Below, one piece after another: positions 4,588 to 7,089 of a stretch of 39,105 nt of DNA. A model generated the notes under the pieces. The model ran no database searches and was not told the origin of the DNA. It saw nothing but the letters and a program-made list of their open reading frames with translations. Source of the stretch: Clostridia bacterium (GTDB taxonomy: Bacteria > Bacillota > Clostridia > Oscillospirales > CAG-272); NCBI GenBank assembly GCA_017619885.1, contig JAFZRM010000132.1:1-39105 (forward strand), given 5' to 3'. Both the position numbers and the translations under genes were made by a program. Each line of letters opens with the position of its first letter. Within the stretch, counting starts at the first letter, position 1.

Positions 4588-7089
4588 TCAGCCGACGAAT
4601 TCGTAGCCCTGCTCCTCGACCGCGGCTTTGATCACGCCGTCCGGCACGTCCTTTGACAGCGTCAGGATCGCCGTGCCTTTTTCGTGACTCGTTACGGCGG
4701 ATTCCACGCCGTCAAGCGCCTCGAGCGCTTTTTTTACTCTCGCCTCGCAGTGCGGGCACATCATACCTTTGATAAATACCGTTTTTTCCATGTTTTTCTC
4801 CTCCGTATCAGTATCATGATCATGCGCCTTCTCCGGCGCTTCTTTGTTTTCGAATTTTACCGGCTTGAACAGGTTGAGCCTCAGCGCGTTCATTACGACG
4901 CAGAAACTTGAAAGGCTCATCGCCGCCGACGCGATCATCGGATCGAGCGTCAGCCCGAGACCGCTGAACACGCCCGCCGCGACGGGTATGCAGACGGCGT
5001 TGTAGATGAAAGCCCAGAACAGGTTTTGATAAATCGTGTGCAGCGTCCTGCGAGACAGTTTTACAGCGTTTACGACGTCAACCGCCGCACTCTTCGTCAG
5101 CACCACGTCCGCCGCGTCGACGGCTATATCCGTCCCGGCGCCGATCGCGATGCCGATATCCGCGGCCGTCAGCGCCGGCGCGTCGTTGATCCCGTCGCCG
5201 ACCATCGCGGCTTTTTTGTCTTTTGAAATGCGCCGGATCACCGCTTCTTTTTCCTGCGGCAGAACGCCGGCGACCACGTCAGAAACGCCTATACGCGCGC
5301 CGACCGCCTTTGCGGTCCGCTCGTTGTCGCCGGTCAGCATCGTGACGGCGACGCCCATCTCGCAAAGCTCCCGCACCGCGAAGGCGCTGTCTTCCTTTTC
5401 CGTGTCGGCTACCGCGACGATCCCGGCGAGCACGCCGCCGTACGCGAAGTACAGAGGCGTCTTTCCCTGATCCGACAGCGCCGCCGCGGACCTTTCCGCG
5501 TCGTCCGATACTTCGCAGTGTTCTTTGATATAAGCGAGGTTACCGCCGTACGCCGCCGTCCCGTTCACGGTGCCGGAAAGACCTCTGCCCGGCACGTTTT
5601 CAAAATCGCCGCATTCGGCGGGCGCTGTGCCGCTTGATGACGCGTAAGATTTGATCGCTTTTGCGAACGGATGCTCGCTTTTCTCCTCTAGTGCAGCGGC
5701 GACAGATACGAGCTCGTCCGCGGTCATACCCGACGGCAGAACGTCGGTGACCTGCGGGACGCCCTTCGTCAGCGTTCCCGTCTTGTCGAACACGACGGCT
5801 TTGACTTTTCCGGTCTCTTCAAGCGCTTCCGCGGTCTTGAAAAGGATGTTGTTTTTCGCCGCCACGCCGCTGCCGACCATTACCGCGACAGGGGTCGCGA
5901 GTCCGAGCGCGCACGGACAGCTGATGACGAGAACGGATCTCCCGCGCGCGAGACTGAATCCGATACCGCGGCCGATGATAAGCCATACGACCGTGGTTAT
6001 CAGCGCTATGATCATGACCGCGGGCACGAACACGCCCGATACTTTGTCAGCAGTTTTAGCGATCGGCGCCTTTGACGCCGACGCGTCGGCGACGGCTTTT
6101 ATGATGTGCGAAAGCGTCGTGTCCTCGCCGACCGCCGTCGCGCGGCATCTGACGTAGCCGGTGCGGTTGATCGTCGCGCCGCTGACCGTGTCGCCCGGCG
6201 ATTTTTCCGCCGGCACGCTCTCGCCGGTAAGCGACGATTCGTCGACGGTGCATCTTCCCTCAACGACGACGCCGTCCGTCGGAATCTTCTCGCCGGGATA
6301 GACTGCGAACACGTCGCCGACTTTCAACTCCGAAACTACGACCGTGATCTCACCGCCGTCCTTTATCAGGTGAGCCGTGTCCGGCATAAGCTCGGACAGA
6401 CCTTTCAGCGCGCTCGTCGTCCTGCCCTTCGAATACGATTCGAGAGTCTTGCCGAGCGTTATCAACACGAGGATCATCGCCGCGCCTTCAAAATAGAATT
6501 CGTGCATGAGCGAAGCGGCTTTTTCCGCCTCGCCCGATGAGGCCGCGGCGGTCATCAAAAACAGTATCGCCGTGCTGTAGACGAACGACGCGCCCGAGCC
6601 GAGCGATACGAGCGTATCCATGTTCGGCGCGCCGTGAAACAGCCCTTTAACGCCTGACACGAAGAATCTGCCGTTTATTATCATCACGGCGGCGGACAGT
6701 ATCATCTGAACAAGTCCGATTGCGACGTGATTGCCGTGAAGGGGAGGCGGCAGCGGCCAGTCCCACATCGTGTGGCCCATCGAAACGTACATCAGCGGCA
6801 GAAGTATGACCGCCGACACGATGAAGCGGAGAAGCAGTTTCCTCGTCTCGCCGCCCGTGTCTTTCATATCTTTTGCAGCGGGGGCGCCGTCGGCCGACGA
6901 GGCGCCGTAGCCGGCGCGCCGCACCGCCGAGATCACCTGCTCGGCGGTCGCCGTGCCTTCGACGCTCATGTCGCCGGTCAGCAGATTTACGCTGCATTCG
7001 GTCACGCCGTCAAGCCCCGACACGGCTTTTTCAACTCTGCTGCTGCACGCCGCGCAGCTCATACCCGTGACTTTATATTTCTTCTTCAT
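4588..7089 (-). CDS. copA: Copper-translocating P-type ATPase with N- and C-terminal HMA domains
   Basis: An 833-residue P1B-1 ATPase that exports Cu(I). In order: HMA domain with GMSCAAC (residues 9-15), paired membrane helices (about 85-180), actuator motif TGES (288-291), the copper-site CPC (391-393) in a membrane helix, phosphorylation motif DKTGTL (D435), SEHPFA, GDGINDAP, then the last membrane helices. After a His/Asp-rich linker comes a second HMA domain (767-833) with GMMCPHC. A C-terminal HMA is unusual, because the fold normally ends after the last helices. It has the length and ends of a free CopZ, and an internal ribosome site precedes its ATG (4789-4804). The gene overlaps csoR by ATGA, so both sit under the CsoR operator. 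Confidence 0.95.
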   Translation of the reverse strand: MKKKYKVTGMSCAACSSRVEKAVSGLDGVTECSVNLLTGDMSVEGTATAEQVISAVRRAGYGASSADGAPAAKDMKDTGGETRKLLLRFIVSAVILLPLMYVSMGHTMWDWPLPPPLHGNHVAIGLVQMILSAAVMIINGRFFVSGVKGLFHGAPNMDTLVSLGSGASFVYSTAILFLMTAAASSGEAEKAASLMHEFYFEGAAMILVLITLGKTLESYSKGRTTSALKGLSELMPDTAHLIKDGGEITVVVSELKVGDVFAVYPGEKIPTDGVVVEGRCTVDESSLTGESVPAEKSPGDTVSGATINRTGYVRCRATAVGEDTTLSHIIKAVADASASKAPIAKTADKVSGVFVPAVMIIALITTVVWLIIGRGIGFSLARGRSVLVISCPCALGLATPVAVMVGSGVAAKNNILFKTAEALEETGKVKAVVFDKTGTLTKGVPQVTDVLPSGMTADELVSVAAALEEKSEHPFAKAIKSYASSSGTAPAECGDFENVPGRGLSGTVNGTAAYGGNLAYIKEHCEVSDDAERSAAALSDQGKTPLYFAYGGVLAGIVAVADTEKEDSAFAVRELCEMGVAVTMLTGDNERTAKAVGARIGVSDVVAGVLPQEKEAVIRRISKDKKAAMVGDGINDAPALTAADIGIAIGAGTDIAVDAADVVLTKSAAVDVVNAVKLSRRTLHTIYQNLFWAFIYNAVCIPVAAGVFSGLGLTLDPMIASAAMSLSSFCVVMNALRLNLFKPVKFENKEAPEKAHDHDTDTEEKNMEKTVFIKGMMCPHCEARVKKALEALDGVESAVTSHEKGTAILTLSKDVPDGVIKAAVEEQGYEFVG
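4789..4804 (-). promoter_or_regulatory. Internal ribosome site and ATG inside copA (possible CopZ start)
   Basis: On the - strand GGAGGAG (4804-4798) stands six bases before an in-frame ATG (4791-4789), which begins the C-terminal HMA domain. Initiation there would make a 67-residue protein (4791-4588) with MCPHC, the size of a CopZ copper chaperone. The match and spacing are as good as at the true gene starts here. Whether it is used is inference. Confidence 0.5.

What the first reader, a model, noticed from the sequence alone, without database searches (positions are those of the whole stretch)
4588..4804. Internal ribosome site in copA could release a free CopZ chaperone
The last 67 codons of copA form a full HMA domain with MCPHC. 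Directly before its first Met lies GGAGGAG with a six-base spacer, in frame, after a His/Asp-rich linker. One gene would then give both the pump and a separate copper chaperone. E. coli copA reaches the same end by ribosomal frameshifting; here it would be internal initiation. A C-terminal HMA on CopA is itself unusual.
Basis: partly seen in the sequence, partly recalled or inferred. Interest (0 to 1): 0.75.

Follow-up and report, generated by a model that had tools for sequence, protein, structure and literature searches.

The report
Copper chaperone gene nested inside copA
Inside this bacterium's copper-pump gene, and in most of the related genes examined, a ribosome-binding sequence and a start codon sit just before the last domain, so the one gene would likely make both the pump and a small free copper carrier, a double product that E. 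coli is reported to reach by a different trick.

Summary
copA (7089..4588, minus strand, 833 aa) ends in a second HMA domain preceded by GGAGGAG, six bases and an in-frame ATG. One such site could be chance, so conservation decides. Of 203 CopA proteins with a fused C-terminal HMA, 176 keep an ATG plus a Shine-Dalgarno (SD) at this place, 2 keep GTG plus SD, 25 do not. In the non-redundant first set 137 of 149 such ATGs have a strong SD, against 5.4% of 4010 other in-frame ATGs of the same genes. The SD occurs in all three codon phases at a dominant spacing. The linker is AT-rich (39% GC in 55% GC genes) only where the SD is kept. SD and start codon tend to be lost together on the tree. Some split copA/copZ loci show the same SD-ATG overlapping the copA stop. 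Stand-alone soluble CopZ-like genes were found in 8 of 25 genomes that lost the site and 0 of 45 that kept it. No frameshift signal was seen. The free chaperone itself is inferred; no expression data were available. A C-terminal HMA is not unusual here.

The parts
4588..7089 (-). copA: copper-exporting P1B-type ATPase, 833 aa, with an N-terminal and a C-terminal HMA domain
   Evidence: ORF; Pfam E1-E2_ATPase, Hydrolase, HMA x2; NCBIfam TIGR01511 copper-translocating P-type ATPase 563 bits, cut-off 397
6907..7077 (-). N-terminal HMA domain of CopA (GMSCAAC)
   Evidence: PF00403 62.7 bits
4792..4878 (-). linker between the last membrane helices and the C-terminal HMA; carries the internal ribosome-binding site
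   Evidence: sequence; tail parsed; linkers of SD-keeping genes average 39% GC in genes of 55% GC
4798..4804 (-). internal Shine-Dalgarno GGAGGAG
   Evidence: sequence; -9.5 kcal/mol with anti-SD; conserved
4792..4797 (-). six-base spacer aaaaac
   Evidence: sequence
4588..4791 (-). nested copZ-like reading frame: internal ATG at 4791..4789, 67 codons, stop 4590..4588
   Evidence: sequence; CopZ-type HMA; an ATG near this place in 179 of 203 fused CopAs
4600..4782 (-). C-terminal HMA domain (GMMCPHC)
   Evidence: PF00403 55.5 bits
7086..7382 (-). csoR-like metal-sensing repressor gene directly upstream, overlapping the copA start by 4 bases (ATGA)
   Evidence: PF02583 101 bits; coordinates

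Best explanation
The copA gene carries a conserved internal ribosome-binding sequence and start codon directly before its C-terminal HMA domain, so it would likely yield two proteins from one frame: the full pump with a tethered CopZ-like domain, and a free 67-residue CopZ-like copper chaperone. Mechanism, with shown and inferred steps apart. Shown: GGAGGAG-N6-ATG lies in frame; the linker is AT-rich; the element recurs across many families at nucleotide level, in all three codon phases, with a start codon at a dominant spacing. Inferred: 30S subunits bind the linker between elongating ribosomes and start at Met767; the released domain binds Cu(I) through CxxC and ferries it to the pump or to the CsoR-like repressor, while the tethered copy stays on the pump. 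Inferred history: copA and copZ were neighbouring genes whose stop and start overlapped (as still seen in some relatives); loss of the copA stop fused the frames while the copZ ribosome site stayed under selection.
For: 203 fused CopAs, window included: 176 ATG+SD, 2 GTG+SD, 25 neither by the rule used (ATG 6 to 13 codons before GMxCxxC). The 176 carry 30 coded family labels plus 3 named families. Non-redundant first set: SD of -8 kcal/mol or stronger at 137 of 149 internal ATGs against 5.4% of 4010 other in-frame ATGs of the same genes; 3 of 22 rows without ATG have such an SD, one of them (L006) with GTG. SD phase within the codon 114/26/7 and one dominant spacing (96 of 147): selection on the nucleotide sequence, not only on the amino acids. 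SD stronger than synonymous-codon resampling (mean -9.7 against -6.9, Wilcoxon p 1.5e-23). SD-type 4-mers peak at -14 to -11 (73 to 123 of 176 rows at the three highest positions). Linker GC 0.39 with SD, 0.575 without, gene GC equal (0.546, 0.551). Met and SD lost together: 6 to 8 independent pairs the same way, 0 the other way, 3 to 5 with no difference in SD. Split loci L182, L228, L233 have the same kind of SD-ATG overlapping the copA stop (ATGA); L210 has a stop in the linker but keeps SD and ATG, its near sister L209 is fused. Stand-alone soluble CopZ-like genes: 8 of 25 site-less genomes, 0 of 45 site-keeping ones, Fisher p 1e-4. Own genome: no other HMA domain found (82% complete). Four of four fused named plasmid copies fetched (Roseburia sp. 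831b, Ruminococcus albus 7, Subdoligranulum variabile, Butyrivibrio fibrisolvens) keep SD+ATG.
Against: No translation or protein evidence is available here. Row by row the synonymous test is weak (p<0.05 in 14 of 149; window's own row p=0.30), perhaps because the linker amino acids are themselves shaped by the SD. 25 of 203 fused CopAs lack the element at this place; two of these hold a displaced pair 17 codons before the motif (L111 with ATG, L187 with TTG), and two keep an SD-like stretch with no start codon (L062, L120). 17 of the 25 site-less genomes showed no CopZ-like stand-alone gene among the ORFs that I read. The 50-bit line for CopZ-like was drawn after seeing the scores: one more ORF in a site-keeping genome (G246, L291/L319, 48 bits, 181-residue frame) lies just under it; counting it gives 1 of 45, p 8e-4. 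Four site-keeping genomes have membrane-anchored CopZ-scoring genes. The tree-controlled test of site loss against stand-alone CopZ was uninformative (3 independent pairs). Openness of the mRNA hardly exceeds what base composition gives (z +0.19, p 0.007). Of 22 unfused copA loci show no HMA gene in the 1400 bases downstream.
Confidence: 0.85

Rival explanations
1. Fossil of a recent fusion: copA and copZ fused and the old copZ ribosome site is simply still there, unused.
For: Split relatives with the same kind of SD-ATG exist, one a near sister of a fused gene (L210 beside L209). Class changes on the tree are many (27). Two site-less rows keep an SD-like stretch without a start codon (L062, L120), as decay would give.
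Against: SD and ATG persist in 176 of 203 fused genes with 30 coded family labels plus 3 named families, while the rest of the linker differs in sequence and length; linker GC stays low only where the SD is kept; SD sits in three codon phases. A neutral fossil should mostly decay piecemeal, whereas SD and Met tend to go together.
Confidence: 0.08
2. The purine run is a translational pause site that lets the last membrane helices insert before the HMA domain is made; the Met is incidental.
For: In the window the element lies within 30 codons after the conserved end of the membrane part, a sensible place for a pause.
Against: A pause needs no start codon; yet an ATG is kept in 179 of 203 (158 of the 176 SD rows at exactly -8), and L006 and L205 with strong SDs have GTG. 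Where the ATG is gone the residue at that place is V, L, I, S, T, N, A or P, so Met is not needed by the fold. The SD-ATG spacing is that of initiation sites (spacing; that this is typical is recalled).
Confidence: 0.04
3. A frameshift device as in E. coli copA: the internal SD stimulates slippage and truncates the pump, releasing no C-terminal fragment.
For: An SD-like sequence upstream of an A-rich stretch is a known stimulator layout (recalled).
Against: Zero-frame slippery heptamers X_XXY_YYZ near the site: 6 of 146 rows against 5.9% of 8748 background windows, and none in the window's own gene.
Confidence: 0.01
4. The lysine/glutamate-rich linker is selected as protein (flexible charged tether) and only happens to look like an SD.
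For: K and E are the commonest linker residues near the Met, and the row-wise synonymous test is weak.
Against: Codon choice is more SD-like than synonyms over all rows (p 1.5e-23); the SD is encoded as KE(E), KGE, KRE, ERK or RK by phase; linkers without the start codon mostly lose the motif (19 of 22 at the -8 line).
Confidence: 0.02

Closest known systems
E. coli copA programmed -1 frameshifting (CopA and CopZ from one gene)
   Same: One copper-pump gene is reported to give both the pump and a small chaperone (PMC10187127, passages read; the primary papers, Meydan 2017 and Drees 2017, seen only as reference entries).
   Different: There the chaperone is the N-terminal piece, made by frameshifting (end recalled); here it would be the C-terminal domain, made by a second in-frame initiation. 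No slippery site here.
In-frame internal translation initiation in bacteria (N-terminal proteoforms mapped by Ribo-RET)
   Same: A start codon inside a gene giving a shorter product (papers seen as a search listing only).
   Different: Here the short product is a complete domain of a known stand-alone family, and the element recurs over many families.
Separate copA-copZ gene pairs of Bacillota (for example Lactiplantibacillus plantarum plasmid, L359)
   Same: copZ follows copA with its own SD and ATG (also L182, L228, L233).
   Different: There a stop codon ends copA first; here the frames are joined.
[quoted passage not shown]
   Same: C-terminal metal-binding domain on a CopA (title in the reference list of PMC7558416).
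   Different: Not examined here; whether it has an internal start is not known to me.
CopZ2-type chaperones (MxCxHC)
   Same: The C-terminal domain carries MMCPHC, matching the MxCxHC motif that PMC7558416 gives for CopZ2-like proteins (passage).
   Different: CopZ2 of Pseudomonas is a separate chaperone; role here not tested.

Membership tests
P1B-type copper-exporting ATPase CopA | catalytic domains and copper-ATPase profile over cut-off | tested here: met
   TIGR01511 563.2 bits, cut-off 397; PF00122, PF00702
HMA domain / Atx1-CopZ-like fold | PF00403 over cut-off with CxxC, full length | tested here: met
   C-terminal domain 55.5 bits, 1-62/62, cut-off 24.8; sequence matches to solved CopZs 6ff2, 2qif, 1k0v, 1cpz; fold itself not modelled
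CopZ as defined by NCBIfam models | score over the curated cut-off | tested here: not met
   isolated 67-aa domain: NF047957 51.3 of 85, NF033795 48.7 of 91, NF033794 42.2 of 95; so 'CopZ-like', not filed as that family
CopZ as free protein | exists as a separate soluble protein of about 70 residues | not testable with these tools
   67 codons from the internal ATG; product not observed
Internal in-frame initiation gene | in-frame start codon with SD at functional spacing inside the ORF | tested here: met
Internal in-frame initiation gene | element conserved beyond what the protein needs | tested here: met
Internal in-frame initiation gene | initiation peak or N-terminal peptide | not testable with these tools
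   needs ribosome profiling or N-terminomics
E. coli-type programmed frameshift copA | slippery heptamer in the zero frame near the domain border | tested here: not met
   none in the window's gene; 6 of 146 relatives against 5.9% background

The most novel reading that the evidence does not exclude
Across much of Clostridia (and in Treponema copies) copZ is a nested gene: an old copA-copZ pair fused into one frame while the copZ ribosome site stayed under selection, so each cell makes pumps with a tethered chaperone plus a translationally tuned surplus of the same chaperone set free. Annotation misses it (a single CDS in the three annotated fused named records that I opened), and lineages that lose the internal start often make up for it with a stand-alone copZ.
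Probability: 0.78. Interest if true: 0.8.

Novelty: new variant of a known kind. Interest (0 to 1): 0.72.

Why it matters
If true, 'one gene, pump plus chaperone' was reached at least twice by unrelated translational tricks and from opposite ends of the protein (frameshift at the N-terminal side in E. coli, internal start at the C-terminal side here), which suggests that a set ratio of pump to free chaperone matters. It would also mean that gut and rumen Clostridia that look chaperone-less are not, and that annotation hides a conserved small protein. It gives a natural series (split, overlapping, fused with start, fused without start) for studying how fused genes keep separate products.

Tried and rejected
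Slippery-site frameshifting: no enrichment. mRNA openness at the internal start: far less structure than at other in-frame ATGs (-1.9 against -11.5 kcal/mol), but nearly all of it follows from base composition (z +0.19 against mononucleotide shuffles, p 0.007), so it is not counted as separate evidence. One search picked a wrong, more downstream Met in about 14 rows; corrected. SD-type 4-mers show two smaller peaks at +21 and +23 (33 and 27 of 176), inside the conserved IEGM part of the HMA domain; not pursued. A first count of stand-alone HMA genes by Pfam score did not separate the two groups of genomes; reading the ORFs showed other classes (DLDCANC type, GMMCGMC...PYEKKG type, membrane-anchored type) that occur in both, and only the soluble CopZ-like class differs. 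In the site-less genomes some low-scoring HMA ORFs were not fetched (in G178, G049, G006, G094), so 8 of 25 is a lower bound; in the 45 site-keeping genomes every stand-alone ORF over the Pfam cut-off was read and three below it were not. The 45 were picked mostly from the top of the match lists out of 153 site-keeping loci of the first set, not at random. A recheck of the 25 site-less rows found a displaced ATG+SD in L111 and TTG+SD in L187; I left the count at 25 by the stated rule. Literature: nine searches, not all on copA, listed no paper whose title or abstract start reports an internal start in copA; only open-licence PubMed Central text is covered and most listed papers were not opened. 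The primary E. coli frameshift paper is not held. Structure prediction was not run; it would not bear on initiation.

Full report
WHAT IS THERE. On the minus strand, copA runs 7089..4588 (833 aa), directly after a csoR-like repressor gene whose stop overlaps the copA start (7086..7382). It has two HMA domains. Before the second one the sequence is gatactgatac GGAGGAG aaaaac ATG. The genome held for the window (2.59 Mb, 218 contigs, 82% complete) shows no other HMA domain at the search threshold. The nearest named record is a yak-rumen Clostridia MAG whose partial CopA is 91% identical in its best segment (L033).

IS ONE SITE MEANINGFUL? Not alone. GGAGGR-N4-8-ATG occurs 7 times on both strands of the window; apart from this one, four head plausible genes, one lies in frame inside an ORF and one heads a 40-codon frame. 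The internal SD is stronger than copA's own, but the case must rest on conservation.

CONSERVATION. I collected copA loci from the same family, order and phylum (stretches) and from named records. Of 230 parsed loci, 203 have a fused C-terminal HMA and 27 do not (20 loci were fetched because they looked unfused, and the rest are best matches, so these are no frequencies). Of the 203 fused, window included, 176 have an ATG 6 to 13 codons before GMxCxxC with an SD of -6 kcal/mol or stronger, 166 of them at -8 or stronger; 2 have GTG with SD (L006, L205); 25 have no such pair. The ATG lies exactly 8 codons before the motif in 158 of the 176. The 176 carry 30 coded family labels and 3 named families. 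The close relatives all keep the element although the linker differs: L033 acggaggagaataacATG, L042 aaaggaggaaaacgatATG, L043, L044, L046. Two Treponema copies keep it as well (L037, L038), as do the four fused copies among six named plasmid records that I opened out of 20 listed hits; the other two (Collinsella, L. plantarum) have separate HMA genes.

CONTROLS. In the first set reduced to 171 sequences under 90% C-terminal identity, 137 of 149 internal ATGs have an SD of -8 or stronger, against 5.4% of 4010 other in-frame ATGs of the same genes; rows without the ATG have it in 3 of 22 (L006 with GTG; L062 and L120 with no start codon). The SD falls in all three codon phases (114, 26, 7) at a dominant spacing, so it is encoded through different amino acids (KEE, KGE, KRE, ERK). 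Synonymous resampling with the gene's own codon use gives weaker SDs (mean -6.9 against -9.7; p 1.5e-23 over rows), though single rows are seldom significant (14 of 149; the window's own p is 0.30). SD-type 4-mers peak at -14 to -11, with two smaller peaks at +21 and +23 inside the conserved part of the HMA domain. The linker is 39% GC in SD rows and 57.5% in SD-less rows, with equal gene GC (0.546, 0.551): where the element is kept, the linker has a composition like that of a leader. Low predicted structure at the site follows almost wholly from this composition.

LOSS. In 25 of 203 the pair is gone from its place; two of these (L111 with ATG, L187 with TTG) hold a pair 17 codons before the motif instead. 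On a tree of the ATPase core (230 rows, FastTree) loss of Met and loss of SD go the same way in 6 to 8 independent pairs, the other way in 0, with no difference in SD in 3 to 5 (median p 0.008). I then asked what site-less genomes do for a free chaperone. The 25 site-less genomes and 45 site-keeping ones were searched for HMA domains, stand-alone ORFs were read and sorted with four profiles. Soluble CopZ-like stand-alone genes occur in 8 of 25 site-less genomes (5 of 17 genera) and in 0 of 45 site-keeping ones (0 of 34 genera); Fisher p 1e-4 by genome and 0.003 by genus. The 50-bit line was drawn after seeing the scores; one ORF in G246 lies just under it (48 bits), and counting it gives p 8e-4. 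The site-keeping genomes do hold other HMA proteins, among them four membrane-anchored CopZ-scoring ones (L255, L260, L262; and the ORF upstream in L054, judged by eye). A tree-controlled form of this test had too few pairs (3) to speak. Separately, 3 of 25 site-less copA loci (L019, L072, L100) carry another HMA gene, not of the CopZ-like class, directly downstream, against 0 of 178 fused loci with the site; upstream or opposite HMA genes occur in 2 of 25 and 7 of 178.

HISTORY. Among the 27 unfused loci, L182, L228 and L233 have copZ overlapping the copA stop (ATGA), with an SD in front; L231 and L227 have it 3 and 23 bases on; L210 has a stop in the linker, keeps SD and ATG, and is the near sister (0.06) of fused L209. 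These read as stages between an overlapping gene pair and a fused gene with a nested start. In 15 of the 22 unfused loci no HMA motif gene was seen in the 1400 bases downstream. Direction of change is not inferred from the tree.

MECHANISM. Shown: the element and its conservation. Inferred: initiation at the internal ATG, the free 67-residue protein, its copper binding and its target. A frameshift alternative finds no support: slippery heptamers in 6 of 146 rows, background 5.9%. A pause site would not need the start codon. A fossil would be unlikely to stay in register over this distance.

KNOWN AND NEW. E. coli copA is reported to make CopZ by programmed frameshifting, while the chaperone is typically a separate gene elsewhere (passages of PMC10187127). 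[quoted passage not shown] Internal in-frame starts are a recognised class (listing). Nine searches of the open-licence library listed no paper on an internal start in copA. The combination is therefore a new variant of a known kind. The isolated domain misses the NCBIfam CopZ cut-offs, so I call it CopZ-like.

Noticed in passing
window 4585-4590: copA (minus strand, stop 4590..4588) and the DUF4363 gene (plus strand, stop 4585..4587) end tail to tail with no base between them.
   Followed up: no
L240, L281, L286, L290, L292-L294, L316-L318, L320-L323, L345-L350, L353; L019, L072 and L100 downstream of copA: A frequent stand-alone HMA class with GMMCGMCEAHVNDAVR-like motif and a PYEKKGLF-like tail, distinct from CopZ-like and from DLDCANC-type proteins; in L019, L072 and L100 such a gene sits directly behind copA. 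Function unknown to me.
   Followed up: partly
L255, L260, L262, L054 upstream: Membrane-anchored HMA proteins (hydrophobic N-terminus, cysteine cluster, then GMHCE.C) in genomes that keep the nested copZ start; in L054 the gene lies directly upstream of copA.
   Followed up: partly
L177 (G094), L187 (G006): CopA with two HMA domains in a row at the C-terminus; no ATG+SD pair before either (L187 has a TTG with a strong SD before the last one).
   Followed up: partly
window 775: A second in-frame GGAGGAG-ATG site inside an ORF (601..1683, lipoprotein-like), just after its low-complexity N-terminal part; conservation not checked.
   Followed up: no
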